Below, one piece after another: positions 19,843 to 63,821 of a stretch of 64,000 nt of DNA. This stretch comes from Henriciella marina DSM 19595 (GTDB lineage Bacteria; Pseudomonadota; Alphaproteobacteria; Caulobacterales; Hyphomonadaceae): positions 1,302,001-1,366,000 of the forward strand of contig NZ_AQXT01000002.1 of NCBI RefSeq assembly GCF_000376805.1. The letters are read 5' to 3'. The first letter of the stretch is position 1. Each line of letters begins with the position of its first letter. A program made the translations under genes and the position numbers. The notes under the pieces were generated by a model. That model searched no databases. It had not been told where the DNA came from and was given only the letters and a program-made list of their open reading frames with translations.

Positions 19843-21303
19843 TTACCAGGCGGCCTGGAAACCGACACGGGCACCCGTGCCTCCACTGTCGATGCCGGAA
19901 GCGACACCGGCATTCAGCTGCCATGTCGTATTGAGCCGGTAGGCGGCCGCCATTGCCAAGGCACCTTCGTCCTCATAGTGGCCATAGCCACCGCTGAGCG
20001 CGAACTGCTTGTTGGACGGGACATAAGGCGTATCGAGCGCCATCGCCGCAGCGATACCGCCCCGGTTTTCCCGGATATCCTCTCTGGCACGGCCAATCAG
20101 GCCTGTGTTCTGCGCCAGACCTGAAGACAGGCTGTAATCTGCGGCAAGATTGCCGCTGCGGTCGGTCGTGACGACGCCGACCTCGCCTGACTGCGCAGCC
20201 GTGCTTGCTGCCGAGTTGACGCCGCCGAGATTGTAGGTTGCATCCGCGCCGCCAATGGCAACCTGATTGTCGCCAGTCGCGGTCGCACCATTCCCGATCG
20301 CGATGGAATTGGCACCGGCCGCAGACGCCTGGTTGCCGATGGCGACGGCGCCAAGTCCGCTGGCATTGGCCGCTTCACCAACTGCCGTCGAGCGGACGCC
20401 CGATGCGCTGGCCAGGTGGCCGAAGGCATGCGCGCGTTCTGCAGTGGCAGAGGAGCGCCAGCCATAGGCGGTCGCAGCCGTTGCATTGGCGACGGACTCG
20501 CCGCCGACAGCCGTGGAGGACGTGCCCGAGGCAATTGCTTCTGTGCCCATGGCAACAGCGTCCTGACCGGATGCGACAGCGAGATTGCCCTGCGCAATAC
20601 TTTCAAGACCTGAGGCGCTGGCGGCTTCACCAACCGCGAGCGAGCGTACGCCCGAAGCCTTGGCGAGGTGGCCAAAAGCCTGGGCCCGCTCAGCCGTGGC
20701 TTCAGCACGCCAGCCATAGGCGCTCGCGCCTGGGCCCATGGCGACGGCCTGACCGCCGACAGCAGTGGTCGAAGGACCGCTGGCGGTCGTTGCGCGGCCC
20801 TCCGTGCCGTCGCGATTGCCGCCGATTGCGATGGCATCGCCGCCCGTAGCCGAGGCGGTGCTGCCGATGGCGATGGAATTGGTATCAGCGGCTGAAGCCT
20901 GATTGCCGAGTGCGACAGATTGCTGGCCGGTCGCGTTTGCCGCTTCACCGACAGCAGTGGCTCTCACACCGGATGCATTCGCAAGGTGACCAATGGCGTG
21001 GGCGCGTTCAGCCGTCGCTGACGACTGCCATCCGAAGGCCGTGGCCGCCGTGCCGGTTGCGTTCGACTCGCCGCCGACGGCGGTCGTCGATGTGCCATCT
21101 GCATTGGCATCTGTGCCAACCGCGAGCGCGTCGGATCCATCAGCGTCGGCATTGACGCCGCACTCGAGAGAGGTCGCATCAACAGCGCCCGCATTACAGT
21201 CCGGGGTCGCATCAGCGGATGCCGTTGTCATTGGCAGAACGGTCCATGCCGCGCTGGCGAGCGTGAGCGCGCTGACCGTCTTTTTCAAATTGTAGAGTTT
21301 CAT
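19843..21303 (-). CDS. YadA-type trimeric autotransporter adhesin
   Basis: This 486-residue protein has a signal peptide (MKLYNLKKTVSALTLASAAW, then cleavage near TASA-DA). A head follows, made of SLAIG-like 14-residue repeats of the Hep/Hag type (S.AIG..A.A.G). A short connector leads to a C-terminal YadA anchor from about residue 415: a short helix RAREDIRENRGGIAAAMAL, then four beta strands ending FQAAW. The family trimerises to build one 12-stranded barrel that displays the head for adhesion. The stalk is very short, so the head sits close to the surface. ATG at 21303 is chosen because the signal peptide starts there. It is divergent from an ECF sigma gene. Confidence 0.88.
   Translation of the reverse strand: MKLYNLKKTVSALTLASAAWTVLPMTTASADATPDCNAGAVDATSLECGVNADADGSDALAVGTDANADGTSTTAVGGESNATGTAATAFGWQSSATAERAHAIGHLANASGVRATAVGEAANATGQQSVALGNQASAADTNSIAIGSTASATGGDAIAIGGNRDGTEGRATTASGPSTTAVGGQAVAMGPGASAYGWRAEATAERAQAFGHLAKASGVRSLAVGEAASASGLESIAQGNLAVASGQDAVAMGTEAIASGTSSTAVGGESVANATAATAYGWRSSATAERAHAFGHLASASGVRSTAVGEAANASGLGAVAIGNQASAAGANSIAIGNGATATGDNQVAIGGADATYNLGGVNSAASTAAQSGEVGVVTTDRSGNLAADYSLSSGLAQNTGLIGRAREDIRENRGGIAAAMALDTPYVPSNKQFALSGGYGHYEDEGALAMAAAYRLNTTWQLNAGVASGIDSGGTGARVGFQAAW
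20320..21093 (-). repeat. Three 68-residue super-repeats in the YadA head
   Basis: Above the 14-residue head motif there is a longer period. Residues 71-138, 177-244 and 261-328 (DNA 20890-21093, 20572-20775 and 20320-20523) are three colinear, diverged copies, each starting with a (T/P)S(S/T)TAVGG motif and containing GW, ATAERA(H/Q)A, FGHLA or IGHLA, SGVR and AVGEAA. Spacers are 38 and 16 residues. This points to growth of the head by segmental duplication. Confidence 0.8.
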
Positions 21304-21548
21304 GAGTGCCTTCCCTGTTTCCCTGACCTGGCTCGGCACGTCTGAATGCGCGCACCGAGAATGGACACACGCCCATCGCCAACAGCTACGTTGCGGCCAT
21401 TGCCAGAGGTGCGCTTTCACGAAAATTTTCTGGAAGGTGTGTCGGAAATTTCTGGCCAGGCATCGCGACAGCCCGGTGAAAAACACCATACGGAACTTTA
21501 CTTTTCTGAACCAGAGCTAGTTTTCTGTGAAACGACGCGAGGAAATCC

Positions 21549-57045: not shown

Positions 57046-59709
57046 TCATTCAGGCGGATGACCAATGAGCGTCTCGTCACGGAGTGTAAGCGTGTCCCGT
57101 TTGTCCGCAGGAACCAGATCCTCCCACGAATAGCGCACAGGCACCTCTGCGACCGATTGAGGCGTGCGTAGTAGCAACTCGAAGGCATCCCGCGGGGCGA
57201 GTTTGAACGAATATTTGCTGGCGCCGTTGACTTCAGCAGGCGCGAGCGTCCCATCAGCCTGACGTTCAGACCCGACTATCCGCGCTCCTTCGTGCGTCCA
57301 AGGCACAGTGATTTCCGCAGAAACCTCTTCGTCAGCCATATTCTGCGCAAGGATGCGGGCGGTGTCGCCTTGCCGGGAAAACGCTTCGATCGTCAACGTC
57401 TCGGAAACCGCGAAGCCACCTTCAACCTGCCCAGCCTCAAAAGGCCAGTAATTGAACGACTTGGCGGCGCGTGCTGAGCGCGCAGGTGTTTCGGCATCGG
57501 ATGGCAGAATCGCATAACTGAATCGACGGACAGGCATCCCCGAATAGAGGGGATTGGGTTTGCCTCGATAATTAGGTTGGGCGTTCATCAGGAAATGATC
57601 GATGTGCCCATCAACCCACTCCCGTCCGGGCATTCCCTGGTCGATGAGGACAATTCCTGAGCCATCTTCAGTATGGTGGCTTGACCAGAGCGATGCCGGC
57701 GCGATTTCGTTATTCAGACCCAGCATTTTGTGATCATGCGAGGCGCGCACGTCTTCGAGCTTTCGCGGCGGGCGAGGCAAGTCGCGGTCAAAGCCAAATG
57801 GCGTTCCCCTCAACGATTGAGCCAGTTCGCCGCCAAGGTCATGGCGTGCGACGAGAAGCAAGCCATCTGGTATACCTCGCGTGAGCGTTTGAAAGATGAT
57901 CCGCTCGCCCTGTTTGGGGATCTGGACCCACCGCTCAATCTCAATTCCTTCAGCGGTCGACGTCACGGCTTTCACCGTCGTGAAGACCGGGCCATCAAAC
58001 TGGGTCAACTCAGCTTCGTATTCCGATGTCCGACCAATAATCTCTCTGCGATTAGGCGGCGAGAGAATGTCGGTCAGACTTAAGTTCGCTGCTGGAACGC
58101 CGTGGTCGACCATCCAAACCAGCTCGTTGAGCCGACCCTCGACTGCGCTGGTATGATTGGCAAAGCCAATAGAGAGGATGTCGCCTGTGCGTTCATCGAA
58201 CTCAACAATGAGGTCGTCTGCTTCAACGCGTCCAGTAAACGGTTCGACTTCAGCCTGTATCGCCTTGCTAGTAGAAAGCGGCTCTGTTGCAAAAGGAGTA
58301 AGCCCGCCAACACACCATAATGCGGCTTCGGTCATCGCTGGTTCGCACACCGCGGTGTCCGGCTGGGTTGAGACATCCAGCCAGAAATACGCTTCGCCGC
58401 GTTGCCAAGCGACCGGGTCGAAAGCGTTGTCTTCGCCCTGCGCAAGCTGAATTTCTTCTGTTTTCTCTCGGGTGAGAATATCCCGGTCGATGTAATTCCA
58501 GTCTTTCGTGCCTGTGAACACGTCCCCGGCGCCAGCACCCCACTGAAGTGCCCTATCTGCATTCAGAAGAACAAGCCACCAGGCATCATCGATTGTCTGT
58601 GATGGGTAGTCCATCCGGCCTGATAGAGACTGGACTGAAGCCCCTAATTCAGTAGCGATGAGACCGGACTCGGTGGATCTGAAAGATTGCTTGAGCTGCG
58701 GCAGGTTTCCCCAGAACGCATTGTAAGCGAATAGACTCGGGGTCGTGATCGTCTCGATATCATGATTAGCGAGGTCAACCGATCGAACGCTTTCCCAGTA
58801 ATCGTCAAGTGTACCAAGGCAAGCTATCCTGCCCGTTCTGGCAGTCGTTTCCTGCGCTATCTCCAAAAGCCGGCCCGGGTCGTCAGGCTTTCGTGCATAG
58901 TCATGGCCGCCGACGCCCCAGAGAAACGGGAGGTCAGGCTGATACACAAGCTCGGGCACGATCTCCAGAAAAAGGTGGTCTACCCAGTGCTCCGGAAGTG
59001 GGCCCGTCTCACGAAACGCGATGCGCCACTTGGAATAATTCGCGATCGACGCGACCAGTGTTTCGGCACCGCTTGCCGCTTTCAATATATAGAGCTGATC
59101 CAAAGTCTCGGCGTTGCGAATATGAACCATGCTGTCGATACCAACCAGATCGAACAACTCTGCCATATTGGGCGTGATACCAAGCACGTCGATGAACCAG
59201 GCGTTGCTCGGCTGCTCGTCGAGTGCCGCGCCATACCATCCGCGCGCAGTACGCCCCATGTTTAGAGCGGTCGCCGCTTGAACAAGAGCAGGCTCAAACT
59301 CCACTGTAAATGCGTTGGCGATTGATGCCTTCTCCGCAGCCAATGCGGACCTGAATCTCTCGAAATCATTTGGCGCCAGGCTTTCAAGGGCAATTGCCGT
59401 TGGGACCTCTGAGAAAGAGAATGGGAAGCCGGACTCATCACCGGAATCCAGGAAAGAGATATAGTTGTTGATCATGTAGTTTCGCTCGGACGCAAAACCG
59501 GTGAGCCAGCCCGTCGCCGTGCCATGCGTATTCGGAACAACCCAGATCGGGTCCGACGCAGCCTGACATTCCGACTTGTCGAATATGTCGACCGAGCTGG
59601 CTTGATCGCCAGTTTGGCTCTGCGCGCTCGAAGGCATGGCTGTAACCGAAACCACTGCAGCCAGAGCTGTCAGACCAGCCCAAAGTCTCACCGAACTTGG
59701 ATTAAACAA
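57046..59709 (-). CDS. Secreted GH38-like (alpha-mannosidase fold) protein with degenerate metal site
   Basis: This 887-residue protein has a signal peptide (LWAGLTALAAVVSVTAMPSS) and the architecture of glycoside hydrolase family 38: a first-strand motif WVVPNTHGTATGWLTG, the nucleophile region WFIDVLGITPNMAELFDLVG with Asp174, the LPQLKQSFRSTESGLIATE helix, and the WGAGAGDVFTGT loop that corresponds to the usual HHD..TGT. C-terminal beta-sandwich domains follow. Two of the usual zinc ligands are missing: the Asp of the first H-x-D motif is replaced (His62-Gly-Thr) and the HHD is AGD. Catalysis may be changed or lost. The start is TTG with GGGGGAA upstream. Base composition seems less GC-rich than its neighbours, hinting at transfer. 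It could instead belong to an uncharacterised GH38-related family. Confidence 0.7.
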   Translation of the reverse strand: MFNPSSVRLWAGLTALAAVVSVTAMPSSAQSQTGDQASSVDIFDKSECQAASDPIWVVPNTHGTATGWLTGFASERNYMINNYISFLDSGDESGFPFSFSEVPTAIALESLAPNDFERFRSALAAEKASIANAFTVEFEPALVQAATALNMGRTARGWYGAALDEQPSNAWFIDVLGITPNMAELFDLVGIDSMVHIRNAETLDQLYILKAASGAETLVASIANYSKWRIAFRETGPLPEHWVDHLFLEIVPELVYQPDLPFLWGVGGHDYARKPDDPGRLLEIAQETTARTGRIACLGTLDDYWESVRSVDLANHDIETITTPSLFAYNAFWGNLPQLKQSFRSTESGLIATELGASVQSLSGRMDYPSQTIDDAWWLVLLNADRALQWGAGAGDVFTGTKDWNYIDRDILTREKTEEIQLAQGEDNAFDPVAWQRGEAYFWLDVSTQPDTAVCEPAMTEAALWCVGGLTPFATEPLSTSKAIQAEVEPFTGRVEADDLIVEFDERTGDILSIGFANHTSAVEGRLNELVWMVDHGVPAANLSLTDILSPPNRREIIGRTSEYEAELTQFDGPVFTTVKAVTSTAEGIEIERWVQIPKQGERIIFQTLTRGIPDGLLLVARHDLGGELAQSLRGTPFGFDRDLPRPPRKLEDVRASHDHKMLGLNNEIAPASLWSSHHTEDGSGIVLIDQGMPGREWVDGHIDHFLMNAQPNYRGKPNPLYSGMPVRRFSYAILPSDAETPARSARAAKSFNYWPFEAGQVEGGFAVSETLTIEAFSRQGDTARILAQNMADEEVSAEITVPWTHEGARIVGSERQADGTLAPAEVNGASKYSFKLAPRDAFELLLRTPQSVAEVPVRYSWEDLVPADKRDTLTLRDETLIGHPPE

Positions 59710-60076
59710 CCCGATTCCCCCAATCTCAACGCAACTAATTCTTTACCTTACAAGGTCGTGTCAAACAGGAAAGAGGCGCCGTTGCCAAATGTTAGTGGGC
59801 AGGCGGCCGAGTAGGTGTCTTGCGGGTCAGGGATGTCGAGAACGAGACCTCTCCCTGACCGTCCGTATACGGCCACGAGCTGACGGAACGCAGGACGAAC
59901 AGACAGGGCAGACCTACACCAATATATAAAGTAAGACCCGGATATGCCTGTAATTTAAACAAAATTTTCATTCCGATCTTCACCCTTTCGGGTGACGCCA
60001 GCGCCGGAATTTCTTTCTAGCCTCCCCTCCATCGACGGCAGCATTGGTTGCCAGAGCAACCGGGGGGCCTACAGGC
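59710..60076. other. 367-bp divergent intergenic region with inverted repeat
   Basis: The region between the GH38-like gene (-) and the collagen-like gene (+) is comparatively AT-rich. It contains a perfect 9-bp inverted repeat GGTCAGGGA/TCCCTGACC (59825-59833 with 59852-59860) whose loop carries a further small GTC/GAC pairing. This could be an operator or RNA hairpin. Promoters for both genes should lie here; I could not assign a confident -35/-10 pair, and no small gene is supported. Confidence 0.5.
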
Positions 60077-61756
60077 GTGGCAGACAAAGTTAAGAAAACT
60101 CACATCAGGGGCAGCGAACGCAAGGGCGGGTTTGTCCTTCGGACCCTGCTTGCCTCTTCGGCCATCGCCGTCGTCCCCTTCTTTCTGCCTTGTGACTTCA
60201 TGAAGGGCTATGCACAGGAAGTCGGCCCCCCAGGGCCTCCAGGACCTCCAGGGCCACCCGGACCGCAAGGACCATCTGGACCACCAGGTCCAAAAGGCGA
60301 CCCCGGCGAAGAGGGTGCGCCCGGCAGACCTGGCCCAACAGGACCGCAAGGCGAAGCAGGTAATGATGGGGCGACCGGCCCTTCGGGACCACCAGGCCCA
60401 AAAGGCGACCCCGGCGAAGAGGGCGCGCCTGGCAGGCCTGGCCCAACTGGACCGCAAGGCGAAGCGGGTAATGATGGGGCGACCGGCCCTTCGGGACCAC
60501 CAGGCCCAAAAGGCGACCCCGGTGAAGAGGGTGCGCCCGGCAGGCCTGGCCCAACAGGACCGCAAGGCGAAGCAGGTAATGATGGGGCAACCGGCCCTTC
60601 GGGACCACCAGGCCCAAAAGGCGACCCCGGTGACGATGGCTTACCCGGCCCGCAAGGGCCTCAAGGGCCCGCCGGACCACGAGGCAACGACGGTGCACGC
60701 GGGCCGGCTGGACCGCGTGGCCCCGTTGGAAGCGCCGGACCAGCAGGACCGGCAGGCCCAGTTGGCCCTGCAGGGACAACGGGCGCGTCAGGTGCTCAAG
60801 GACCAGCAGGTCCGGTCGGCTCTCCCGGGCCCGCGGGTCCGCAAGGAGCGACCGGATCGGCGGGCGCGCAAGGACCAGCCGGCCCGGCTGGCGCTGACGG
60901 TTCGCCAGGCACGCAAGGTCCCGCCGGACCCGCTGGCGCGGATGGCGCCAAGGGAGCTGACGGCAAGGATGGCGAAGATGGTGACGACGGGAAGGACGGC
61001 GAAGATGGCGCGCAGGGGCCAGCCGGCCCTGCCGGGACCGACGGTAAGGATGGCGAAGCAGGCCCGGCGGGTCCAGCAGGTCCGGCCGGCCCCGCCGGGC
61101 CGCCGGGACCACCCGGTGACAATGCCGAAATCGTGGAGACCGTCACCACTATCGTGAATGAAATCACATTGATCCAGGGGACAATGGGCGACGTTGGAGA
61201 CCTCGACGTGTTCGACGATCCTGAAGACACTGAAACAGCGGTCGCGCCTCGCGACCTGCCTCAGGTCAGTGCGCCGGTGCAGGTCGGCGGAAACGGCCAG
61301 CAAGCCAGGGCGGAAATGGGTCATTCAGCCCCCAGCTCTGAGACGGCCTCCAATGCGTCCCAACGAACAATCGTCGGCGCAATCAATATGAACACGTCTT
61401 CCATCCGTCAGAATGAAGACGCCATTCGTCTGAATTCGGTTGGAATCGAGGGGAATTCATTGCGCATCAGCTCGCTGGAAAGCCAGTACGTCATGCTTAA
61501 TGACTCGGTTCGCGCGACAACGCGCAGAATAAGCGACGTGGAAGGCGGGCTTGCGGCTGTTTCCTCTATGCCGGACCTCTATCTTGAAAAAGGGGAAAAA
61601 ATGTCGGCGGCGGCAAGTATAGGCGGATATGATGACAATATCGGCTTCGGTACGGCGATAGCGGTCCGTGCCAACCAGAACTGGACCTTCGGCCTGACTG
61701 CGGCCCACGCCAATGGCCATTCGGCCGGCAAGCTCCAGGCCCGCATCGGCTGGTAG
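60077..61756 (+). CDS. Collagen-like trimeric autotransporter with YadA-type anchor
   Basis: This ~559-residue surface protein starts with a long signal peptide (basic RGSERKGG, then [15 protein letters not shown], cleavage near GYAQ-EV). A collagen rod of exactly 100 uninterrupted Gly-X-Y triplets follows (DNA 60224-61123), then a linker with short helices, a coiled-coil stalk ([20 protein letters not shown] and later [14 protein letters not shown]) and a four-strand YadA-like anchor ([41 protein letters not shown]) with terminal aromatic Trp. The trimeric anchor would hold a collagen triple helix upright on the outer membrane. GTG at 60077 is chosen for the G-run upstream; TTG at 60044 is an alternative. 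It likely mediates adhesion or forms a surface spacer. Confidence 0.86.
60269..60631 (+). repeat. 108-bp tandem repeats in the collagen domain
   Basis: Three near-identical 108-bp units (60269-60376, 60377-60484, 60485-60592) each encode 12 Gly-X-Y triplets beginning [16 protein letters not shown]; a fourth, partial copy of 39 bp follows. The encoded peptide units are identical and the DNA differs at only a few bases, so duplication is recent and copy number is probably variable between strains. Confidence 0.92.
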
Positions 61757-61830: not shown

Positions 61831-62259
61831 TTAGGCGGCTCGGGCAAAGCGCCGATCAAAAAGCTCGAACGCCAGCATCCCGATTGCCATGGCGGCGAGA
61901 AACAACAGGGCCGGCATGCCGCCAACCGTTAGCGCCGCGATGGCTGGCCCCGGACAGAGGCCAACAAGCCCCCACCCGAGCCCGAAGAGAACCGCGCCGA
62001 CCGCGAGCCGGGCATCCACTTTCTTGTTGCCCGGCACCTGAAACCGGTCTGCGAGAACGGGCCGTGCGCGTGTCCAGACGAGGCGGTAGCCGATTGCGGT
62101 AACAATCAATGCCGCGCCCATGACAAAGGCGAGCGACGGATCCCAGTTTCCAAACAGGTCGAGGAAAGCGATGACTTTTTCTGGATTTATCATCTGCGAG
62201 ATGACGAGGCCCAGTCCAAAGACAAGACCAGCCACAAGCGCAATCAGGTTTCGTGCCAT
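61831..62259 (-). CDS. YeeE/YedE-family half-transporter, PmpB-like
   Basis: The 142-residue membrane protein has about four helices and the half-site motif [20 protein letters not shown], with the conserved Cys inside the membrane. It pairs with the other half encoded four bases upstream; together they form a YeeE/YedE-like channel thought to move thiosulfate or reduced sulfur species. The start at 62259 has GGAGGAT upstream; an in-frame ATG five codons earlier is less likely. Confidence 0.85.
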
Positions 62260-62263
62260 GGGC

Positions 62264-62689
62264 CTATCCTCCAATCATGGGTTTGATGAGGGCAACAGTC
62301 GCCATTCCGGCTGCCATGAAGAGGGCAACTGACACCATTGAGCGCGGCGAGAGGCGAGATAAACCGCAAACGCCGTGGCCGCTGGTGCAGCCTGATCCGA
62401 GACGGGTTCCAAACCCCACGAACAGCCCGCCTGCAATGATCAGCGGCACGCCTGCCTGCATGTCGAAAGCCGGGCGTTCACCCGCAACGAGCCAGTAAAC
62501 GAGCGGCGCGGCAAGAAGTCCCGCGACAAAGAAGACGCGCCAGAGGCGGTCGCCGCGATCTGCGAACACCGTGCCTGAGAAAAGGCCACTGATTCCGGCG
62601 ATCCGACCATGAAACGCCATGAGCAGGACAGCGGAGAGGCCGATAAGGGCCCCGCCGACACTCGCACTGACAGGTGTGAAGTTTTCCAT
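62264..62689 (-). CDS. YeeE/YedE-family half-transporter, PmpA-like
   Basis: This 141-residue protein has four helices and the signature [20 protein letters not shown], with two Cys typical of YeeE/YedE sulfur transporters. It is the first gene of a two-gene operon with the PmpB-like half and is divergent from the peroxiredoxin-repressor operon, sharing an 83-bp control region. In related bacteria such pairs are controlled by BigR/SqrR and are part of sulfide and persulfide handling. Confidence 0.87.
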
Positions 62690-62707
62690 ACGCCATATTC
62701 CCGATCA

Positions 62708-62744
62708 TTTACAATTGACGTTTCTGTAAAACGTATAATATAAA
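62708..62744. promoter_or_regulatory. Candidate BigR/SqrR operator and promoter between divergent sulfur genes
   Basis: Two overlapping perfect inverted repeats are present: TTTACA-N11-TGTAAA (62708-62730) and ACGTTT-N5-AAACGT (62718-62734). They overlap a TTGACG (62715-62720) N18 TATAAA (62739-62744) promoter for the peroxiredoxin operon. The repeats are good candidates for the binding site of the ArsR-type repressor encoded next door; which of the two is bound is not known. Confidence 0.6.
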
Positions 62745-62772
62745 AGAGCAAGTGAATTTGGGAGGACTGATC

Positions 62773-63420
62773 ATGCCGGACATTCCGTCAAACAATCAGG
62801 TCGCACAGATCGGCTCAGCCGCGCCGGATTTCGATGCCCGCACAACTGAGGGCCATGTCCGCCTTTCGGACTATCGGGGCCGGTGGTTGGTGTTCTTTTC
62901 CCATCCGGCAGACTTCACGCCGGTCTGCACATCGGAATTCATCGCCTTCGAGAAACAGATCGACGCCTTCAGCAATCTTGAGTGCGACCTGCTCGGCTTA
63001 TCCGTCGACAGCCTCTATTCCCATCTCGCCTGGGTGAAGGACATCGAAACCAGATTTGGCGTCCGGATTTCCTTTCCGATCGTCGAAGACATCTCCATGG
63101 CGATTGCCCGCGCCTACGGCATGATCCACTCAGCGTCTGGTTCGACCGCGTCTGTGCGGTCTGTCTTCTTCATCGACCCGGACGGCATTATCCGCGCACT
63201 TATACATTATCCGCTTGCTGTGGGCCGGTCGGTCGAGGAGATCTTTCGGGTTCTCGCCGCCTTGCAAACATCTGAGGCCGATGGTGTCTCGACGCCTGAA
63301 GGCTGGCGCCCGGGCGACGATGCCGTGCTTCCGGCACCGACGGATATGCGCCAAGTCGACGAGCGCGCCGCAATGGACGGGCAGGCCTGGTATCTGACGC
63401 CGAAAGGCAGCCCGCAATGA
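62773..63420 (+). CDS. Peroxiredoxin, 1-Cys (Prx6-like)
   Basis: The 215-residue protein has the peroxiredoxin active site PADFTPVCTSEF with peroxidatic Cys52, the Thr of PxxxTxxC, and a Prx6-type long C-terminal extension (YPLAVGRSVEEIFRVLAALQ, then GWRPGDDAV). The only other Cys (in ECDLLGL) is not at a usual resolving position, so a 1-Cys mechanism is likely. It would reduce peroxides, or possibly oxidised persulfides, with an unknown thiol. ATG at 62773 has GGGAGG upstream. Its stop overlaps the repressor start by four bases (ATGA), so it belongs to the sulfide-responsive operon. Confidence 0.9.
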   Translation: MPDIPSNNQVAQIGSAAPDFDARTTEGHVRLSDYRGRWLVFFSHPADFTPVCTSEFIAFEKQIDAFSNLECDLLGLSVDSLYSHLAWVKDIETRFGVRISFPIVEDISMAIARAYGMIHSASGSTASVRSVFFIDPDGIIRALIHYPLAVGRSVEEIFRVLAALQTSEADGVSTPEGWRPGDDAVLPAPTDMRQVDERAAMDGQAWYLTPKGSPQ

Positions 63421-63821
63421 CCCAGACCCTAGAGACGATGGAGCCGCTGGCCGACGAGGCCGCAGGGCTGCTGAAAGCGCTCTCGCACCCAGCGCGGCTG
63501 ATGATTTGCTGCCAGTTGCGTGACCGCGAAATGTCCGTCAGCGAAATCGAAAGCGCGCTGGACATACGCCAGCCGAGATTGTCGCGCGAACTGGCAAAGC
63601 TTCGCGAAGAAGGCCTCGTCGAAACCCGCCGTGAAGCGAAGTCCATCTTTTACAGCCTCGCTGACAATTCACGCGTGGGCGCAATGATTGATGCGCTCTG
63701 TGTCGTCATGCTCGACAAGGTGGTGCCCGGCTCACGTCCGCTATCACGCGTCGCCCGCAATGCTTTTCTACAGAAGAACCTGACTGAGGGTGCTGGGCAA
63801 TTTGCCCGCATTCTCGATTGA
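63417..63821 (+). CDS. bigR: ArsR-family dithiol repressor, BigR/SqrR type
   Basis: This 134-residue winged-helix protein has the ArsR pattern ALSHPARLMICCQLRDREMS, the recognition helix RQPRLSRELAKLREEGLVET and a wing with REAKSIFYSLAD. Cys31/Cys32 and Cys95 (IDALCVVML) match the two positions that form a di- or tetrasulfide in BigR/SqrR, and arsenic-type or zinc sites of other ArsR proteins are not evident. It is expected to leave DNA when reactive sulfur links the cysteines. The neighbouring genes (sulfur transporter halves, persulfide-dioxygenase-like enzyme) support this. Confidence 0.87.
   Translation: MTQTLETMEPLADEAAGLLKALSHPARLMICCQLRDREMSVSEIESALDIRQPRLSRELAKLREEGLVETRREAKSIFYSLADNSRVGAMIDALCVVMLDKVVPGSRPLSRVARNAFLQKNLTEGAGQFARILD

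What the first reader, a model, noticed from the sequence alone, without database searches (positions are those of the whole stretch)
60077..61756. Collagen rod fused to a YadA-type trimeric anchor, exactly 100 Gly-X-Y triplets
Sequence shows a signal peptide, 300 residues of perfect Gly-X-Y without one interruption, a coiled-coil stalk and a four-strand YadA-like barrel ending in Trp. Established knowledge: YadA anchors trimerise, and collagen needs three chains, so the anchor could supply the trimer registration that bacterial collagens otherwise get from separate foldon domains. Collagen-like autotransporters in this bacterial group are, to my knowledge, little described. The rod would be about 85 nm if fully extended (300 residues x 0.29 nm).
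Basis: partly seen in the sequence, partly recalled or inferred. Interest (0 to 1): 0.72.

Follow-up and report, generated by a model that had tools for sequence, protein, structure and literature searches.

The report
Collagen fibre on a trimeric autotransporter
A bacterium, likely of the genus Henriciella, encodes a protein that consists of a likely export signal, 100 unbroken collagen triplets and a tail predicted to form a trimeric autotransporter anchor, so that a head-less collagen fibre would likely stand on the cell surface and may fold itself as it is exported.

Summary
Window 60077-61756 (+) encodes a signal-peptide-like start, exactly 100 uninterrupted Gly-X-Y triplets (60224-61123) and a 210-residue tail ending in Trp. 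Pfam calls only collagen on the whole protein; the YadA anchor appears only when the tail is scanned apart, at best 20.2 bits against a cut-off of 22.7. The predicted tail still has a long helix and four strands whose five best structural matches are all solved trimeric-autotransporter membrane domains: Hia (three entries), AtaA and YadA. Two Henriciella orthologues have 73 and 7+94 triplets, so "100" is incidental. The pairing is not new: VtaA proteins of Glaesserella parasuis carry collagen between YadA heads and the anchor (PMC6211672, PMC6755704). Apparently new is the reduction: no head detected, collagen as the whole passenger, and a conserved Ile/Val helix right after it that likely starts C-to-N zipping. 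The gene is a lone cassette with an empty site. It shares a rare leader element with a secreted-protein family; the one member read in full is a classical autotransporter. No phage context was found. Trimerisation and surface display are untested.

The parts
59981..60021 (+). shared leader element: CACCC-N4-GGGTG palindrome (59981-59994) followed by AYGC, 18 nt, then CTAGC (60017-60021); promoter or operator by inference
   Evidence: same element 96-99 bp before the start in all three orthologues; palindrome part at only 2 places in this genome; full element at 8 places in 29 genus genomes, 0 with the pattern reversed; about 0.10 expected from base composition
60077..61756 (+). complete CDS, 559 residues, GTG start
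   Evidence: start supported
60077..60214 (+). likely Sec signal peptide with long N-region, cut expected after GYA (residue 46); the mature chain would begin QEV-GPP
   Evidence: read from the sequence and from the A|Q..VGPP junction shared with the orthologues; no predictor run
60224..61123 (+). collagen rod, 100 Gly-X-Y triplets, (GPP)4 at its N end and GPPGPPGDN at its C end
   Evidence: GPP triplets at both ends also in both orthologues
60278..60630 (+). 108-bp tandem repeat, 3.3 copies, 95% matches, inside the rod
   Evidence: not listed in the orthologues, which have other, weaker arrays
61124..61219 (+). conserved block directly after the collagen; helix at tail residues 2-21 (61127-61186) with Ile/Val/Met at 6 of 6 a/d positions; likely nucleation coil
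   Evidence: 75-81% identity to the orthologues, dN far below dS; helix in the model but at pLDDT about 42; such a register reached by 2236 of 100000 shuffles
61220..61357 (+). fast-evolving linker, modelled as disordered
   Evidence: 30-32% identity to the orthologues; pLDDT under 50
61349..61564 (+). stalk helix; four in-register IxxN heptads at 61382-61465
   Evidence: helix 76-147; 1 of 100000 shuffles of the window's stalk; same run of four in both orthologues
61568..61753 (+). membrane anchor: strands at tail residues 160-169, 172-182, 187-196, 199-208 (61601-61747), last residue Trp

Best explanation
This gene encodes a protein predicted, from fold and profile kinship, to be a type Vc (trimeric) autotransporter whose passenger is a 100-triplet collagen sequence with no head detected, and it likely works as a surface fibre of about 87 nm that is tethered by its C-terminus and folds from that end. 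Shown from sequence: the triplets, the tail, its conservation and its kinship to YadA-head autotransporters. Predicted by the monomer model: the stalk helix and the four anchor strands. Inferred from the class: a 12-strand barrel made by three chains, export by the Sec pathway, and passage of the passenger with its C-terminal end first (PMC8151025, passage read). Inferred here: the Ile/Val coil that directly follows the last triplet would emerge first, hold the three chains in register, and let the collagen zip from C to N, so that folding outside would help pull the rest out. The fibre tip would be the GPP-capped collagen N-terminus; its likely job is attachment or spacing in biofilm. The gene stands alone behind a leader element that it shares with a family of large secreted proteins, so surface autotransporters would likely be switched together.
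Against: PF03895 is missed on the whole protein, lies 2.5 bits under the curated cut-off on the last 65 residues, gives 17.0 and 15.0 bits on the orthologue tails and nothing on the related L012 tail. Only a monomer could be modelled; mean pLDDT is 66, pTM 0.40, and residues 1-77, including the nucleation coil, are under 50. Only three of the Foldseek matches reach E 0.001. The heptad pattern of the coil is only modestly better than chance (2236 of 100000 shuffles). The linker separates collagen and anchor, so the anchor itself may not set the register. PHROGs gives the tail two weak matches, one to a phage 'adhesin' family (E 2.4e-4) and one of unknown function (3.7e-4). Presence in 3 of 29 genus genomes shows that it is dispensable. 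C-to-N folding and export coupling are inference; the review that supplies the model says that stable cores are absent from alpha-helical passengers (PMC8151025).
Confidence: 0.8

Rival explanations
1. It is a VtaA-like adhesin: the collagen is only a spacer and adhesion resides in other passenger domains, as in Glaesserella VtaA.
For: VtaA has 2-8 collagen domains before a C-terminal YadA anchor (PMC6211672, passage); 4 of the 120 listed hits carry PF03895 and all four are Glaesserella; rod lengths are alike (84-111 triplets in those four). [quoted passage not shown]
Against: No YadA head (PF05658), ESPR (PF13018) or other domain is found besides collagen; the mature chain would begin three residues before the first triplet.
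Confidence: 0.07
2. The disordered linker is a cleavage site and the collagen, with its nucleation coil, is released as a soluble secreted trimer; the anchor is only the exporter.
For: The linker evolves fast (30-32% identity) while both flanking blocks are conserved, and it is modelled as disordered.
Against: I looked for no protease or cleavage motif, so this is untested; that trimeric autotransporters usually stay attached is recalled.
Confidence: 0.1
3. The Gly-X-Y part stays an unfolded or polyproline-like brush, not a triple helix, because hydroxyproline would be missing.
For: Hydroxylation was not examined; stretches rich in GPA and acidic triplets may be only moderately stable (inference).
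Against: Collagen-like proteins of E. coli prophages form a triple helix of high thermal stability (PMC3368898, abstract and passages read); Pro in X of 50 and Y of 23 of 100 triplets, GPP at both ends and 4 KGD/KGE pairs.
Confidence: 0.06
4. It is a phage tail fibre or a prophage remnant.
For: Collagen repeats occur in tail fibres; PHROGs tail families match the collagen part and a phage 'adhesin' family matches the tail weakly (E 2.4e-4).
Against: Signal-peptide-like start, autotransporter anchor fold, no tail match in 50,697 phage records, none confirmed in IMG/VR, 0 of 103 collagen ORFs from the 80 viral loci kept with an anchor, chromosomal-looking neighbours.
Confidence: 0.02

Closest known systems
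VtaA trimeric autotransporters of Glaesserella (Haemophilus) parasuis
   Same: Collagen triplets and a C-terminal YadA anchor in one chain; rods of 84-111 triplets in the four database entries with anchor (PMC6211672 and PMC6755704, passages read).
   Different: VtaA as described has an ESPR and YadA heads before the collagen, and an anchor that Pfam calls; here no head is found, collagen is the whole passenger, and the anchor is a divergent form. (Of the four entries, the partial record P0093 has stalk but no head domain listed.)
YadA, Hia and AtaA membrane anchors
   Same: Predicted helix plus four strands; these are the five best structural matches.
   Different: 9-17% identity to the five solved anchors; PF03895 score below the curated cut-off.
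YadA-head autotransporters of Hellea and other relatives (P0122-P0138, L012-L014)
   Same: Same stalk and anchor family; 18 invariant columns over 17 sequences.
   Different: 15 of the 20 proteins carry YadA heads and 2 more the stalk domain; no collagen is listed for any of them.
Bucl8 of Burkholderia
   Same: A collagen-like region on an outer-membrane protein modelled as a trimer (PMC4565658, passages read).
   Different: An efflux-pump outer-membrane factor, not an autotransporter.
Scl1/Scl2 of streptococci and Lcl of Legionella
   Same: Bacterial collagen adhesins; their NCBIfam models match mainly the collagen part.
   Different: All below their cut-offs (260.4 against 325, 215.8 against 400, 116.7 against 500 bits); the Scl models are LPXTG-anchored proteins.
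EPclA-type prophage collagens of E. coli
   Same: Collagen beside a trimeric coiled coil and a trimerisation domain (PMC3368898, abstract and passages read).
   Different: Phage fibre domains PfN and PfC instead of a signal peptide and an outer-membrane anchor.

Membership tests
Trimeric (type Vc) autotransporters | C-terminal anchor of helix plus four beta strands per chain | tested here: met
   Predicted model, and five solved anchors as the top matches
Trimeric (type Vc) autotransporters | profile kinship of stalk and anchor with accepted members | tested here: met
   Relatives in YadA-head proteins, two of which pass PF03895
Trimeric (type Vc) autotransporters | coiled-coil stalk of the kind seen in the class | tested here: met
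   Four IxxN heptads in three orthologues, 1 of 100000 shuffles; weak sequence match to solved stalk fragments (2wpr, E 0.045)
Trimeric (type Vc) autotransporters | Sec signal peptide | tested here: inconclusive
   Read by eye from the sequence and the orthologue alignment; no predictor; no ESPR hit
Trimeric (type Vc) autotransporters | homotrimer in the outer membrane with the passenger outside | not testable with these tools
   Only a monomer could be modelled
Pfam PF03895 (YadA_anchor), as a curated call | score over the gathering cut-off of 22.7 bits | tested here: not met
   None on the whole protein; 17.2 bits on 210 residues and 20.2 on 65. This is a detection threshold, not a structural feature of the class
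Collagen-like proteins (PF01391) | long uninterrupted Gly-X-Y run over the Pfam cut-off | tested here: met
   164.1 bits against 27.2, 100 triplets
Collagen-like proteins (PF01391) | folded triple helix | not testable with these tools
   No structure or melting data
VtaA | YadA head and ESPR before the collagen | tested here: not met
   No PF05658 or PF13018
Phage tail fibres | phage fibre domains or a tail-module setting | tested here: not met
   No phage Pfam domain; no tail relatives in the phage records or confirmed in IMG/VR; PHROGs matches lie on the collagen, with two weak ones on the tail

The most novel reading that the evidence does not exclude
A minimal self-assembling collagen secretion device: the Ile/Val coil right behind the last triplet is the stable core that emerges first, the three collagen chains zip from C to N outside the cell, and this zipping is the energy source that draws the fibre through its own pore. 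The whole unit is one 1.7-kb transplantable gene with its own regulated leader, part of a surface-fibre regulon that spans two autotransporter classes.
Probability: 0.3. Interest if true: 0.75.

Novelty: new variant of a known kind. Interest (0 to 1): 0.5.

Why it matters
What powers passenger export in autotransporters without ATP is still debated (recalled); a passenger made only of collagen would be a clean test, because its folding direction, speed (proline isomerisation) and stability can be measured. It would also show collagen used as the entire reach of a surface fibre in marine bacteria, and offer a one-gene way to display long collagen on a cell. Practically, it warns that Pfam-based surveys can miss such anchors: here the whole-protein scan reports collagen alone although the last 65 residues score just under the anchor's cut-off. 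The shared leader element gives a first handle on coordinated control of type Va and type Vc surface proteins in Henriciella.

Tried and rejected
Phage origin: rejected. Plasmid records: no tail match. Meaning of exactly 100 triplets: rejected, the orthologues differ. Protein-database search with the tail alone: none at E 1e-3 among 2210 candidates; it did not return the two orthologues either, so it says little. Whole-protein search: 4772 hits, best 120 listed, driven by collagen; four of the 120 carry PF03895, all Glaesserella; P0101 has collagen with a YadA head but no anchor listed. Looking for other collagen-plus-anchor proteins: a first narrow anchor profile missed the Glaesserella anchors, so a broader one was built; one of its seeds (L204) was in a wrong frame. 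With it, of 289 collagen ORFs 17 redundant copies of the three Henriciella proteins, 4 of 120 database proteins (the same four), 0 of 103 viral and 0 of 49 genome ORFs had an anchor. Of the seven relatives in its control list that were not seeds six were found and L152 was missed. The 103 viral ORFs come from the 80 loci kept out of 359. The 49 genome ORFs come from the loci then held, mainly, and do not cover all of the 105 genomes of 398 with collagen. Of the 46 other anchor rows (some repeat a place) none had a collagen run, but most loci reach only 1.5 kb upstream. Other collagen ORFs of the order seen look by eye like short-run lipoprotein-like proteins, a fibre-like protein (L117) or composition artefacts. 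In one search folds not listed are not excluded. No trimer model, signal-peptide predictor or collagen stability calculator was available. Literature: the searches showed no collagen-only-passenger trimeric autotransporter; of their hits I read passages or the abstract of nine papers (searches cover ten), and the library is open-access only.

Full report
Observation. The frame 60077-61756 (+) reads through 559 residues from GTG to stop. Residues 50-349 are 100 consecutive Gly-X-Y triplets with no Gly in X or Y. Pfam gives Collagen at E 6e-49 and nothing else on the whole protein with the limit at E 10. Both ends of the rod are GPP-rich: (GPP)4 at the start, GPPGPPGDN at the end, and the orthologues keep GPP triplets at both ends while the middle varies. 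A 108-bp unit is repeated 3.3 times at 60278-60630 and is not listed in the orthologues, so the rod length probably still changes by in-frame repeats.

Where it is. The tails are 71% identical to the window's. A full-length tail match occurs in 3 of the 29 genus genomes, this one included. The orthologues carry 73 triplets, and 7+94 triplets with one interruption.

Anatomy of the tail. Conservation splits it in three. The first 32 residues directly after the collagen are 75-81% identical to the orthologues; residues 33-78 are 30-32% identical; the stalk and anchor are 80-85% identical. Between the two orthologues dN and dS over the tail are 0.067 and 0.942; in comparisons with the window dS is near or beyond saturation. 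In the first block every a/d position of one heptad register is I, V or M (6 of 6), reached by 2236 of 100000 shuffles, and the model makes it a helix but at low confidence. In the stalk four consecutive heptads read IxxN, in all three proteins, reached by 1 of 100000 shuffles of the window's stalk. An eLife paper describes asparagine at core position d, binding anions, as a recurrent coiled-coil motif met in work on this protein class (PMC4786415, passages).

How it likely works. In type Vc secretion the region nearest the barrel, the passenger C-terminus, comes out first as a hairpin; in some classical autotransporters a stable core at that end has been proposed to start C-to-N folding that drives export, though such cores are said to be absent from alpha-helical passengers (PMC8151025, passages). 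Here the Ile/Val helix occupies that place, and collagen needs three chains in register and folds as a zipper (established knowledge, recalled). I infer that the coil holds the three chains after export and the collagen zips outward from it. The flexible linker would then act as a hinge between rod and anchor. Adhesion or spacing in biofilm is the likely use; [quoted passage not shown] None of these steps was tested.

Genomic setting. The gene stands between a GH38-like protein on the other strand and a DUF6691/sulphur-transport pair. In both orthologues the neighbours are different and include the same large peptidase-like gene upstream (name by eye); L110 has one more gene, of 398 residues, between that gene and the collagen gene, L109 has not. 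In the window's genome the flanks of the H. marina site are present about 0.9 Mb away (the 398-residue protein is 92% identical); BLAST matches 2678 bp at 91% and 1473 bp at 83% with only 31 bp between them, where H. marina has 1691 bp carrying the collagen gene. This is an empty site: the gene was gained, lost or moved as a single unit. I did not search for mobile elements beside it.

Leader element. Upstream of all three orthologues lies CACCC-N4-GGGTGAYGC, then 18-19 bp, then CTAGC; the palindrome starts 96-99 bp before the start codon. The palindrome part has two sites in the own genome and none with the pattern reversed. The full element has 8 sites in 29 genus genomes and none with the pattern reversed, against about 0.10 expected from base composition. 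The pattern was derived from the three collagen sites (and the tail motif CTAGC was checked on one further site), so at most the other five are independent. They fall into two sequence groups, and all five are followed, about 76-80 bp on, by long ORFs with a signal-peptide-like start and related sequence, four of them seen only in part. The one read in full, 1425 residues in the own genome, has DUF7933, a bacterial Ig-like domain and a C-terminal Autotransporter beta-domain (PF03797, 72.9 bits). The YadA-head protein at 19843-21489 has no such site. The simplest reading is a small regulon of surface autotransporters; whether the element is a promoter, an operator or an RNA hairpin is open.

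What is known. VtaA proteins of Glaesserella parasuis Nagasaki have ESPR, YadA heads, 2-8 collagen domains and a C-terminal YadA anchor (PMC6211672, passages). Bucl8 puts collagen on an efflux factor modelled as a trimer (PMC4565658, passages). So the pairing of collagen with a trimeric outer-membrane anchor is known. A head-less form with collagen as the whole passenger did not come up in my literature searches. Among the 272 other collagen ORFs examined only four have an anchor, all Glaesserella; one of them, the partial record P0093, has stalk but no head listed. I class the Henriciella protein as a new variant of a known kind.

Noticed in passing
59981-60021 here; G000:C2:2944313-2944352 (L271, L273): Rare leader element shared by the collagen autotransporter and a secreted DUF7933 protein family, whose own-genome member is a 1425-residue protein with an Autotransporter beta-domain; 8 sites in 29 genus genomes.
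   Followed up: partly
L110:7007-8697 against L257: Empty site: the window's genome has the H. marina flanks with only 31 bp between them and lacks the collagen gene there.
   Followed up: partly
19843-21489 (-): A second, ordinary trimeric autotransporter in the same window: 12 YadA-head stretches and an anchor over the PF03895 cut-off.
   Followed up: no
57046-59709 (-): 887-residue protein with a GH38 N-terminal match (34.3 bits), neighbour of the collagen gene; found in 3 of 5 genus relatives checked, at 56-57% identity.
   Followed up: partly
61831-63821: DUF6691 and sulphur-transport proteins, a 1-Cys peroxiredoxin-like protein and an ArsR-type regulator, perhaps a sulphur-response cluster.
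   Followed up: no
L117 (G126): A same-family relative's ORF of 606 residues with 63 collagen triplets in long runs and a fibre-like remainder by eye, an unrelated collagen.
   Followed up: no
L012, P0122-P0138: Tails of Hellea-type YadA-head proteins carry no PF03895 call (L012: no hit; P0122-P0138: none precomputed) although they align with the anchor; Pfam seems to under-report these anchors.
   Followed up: partly
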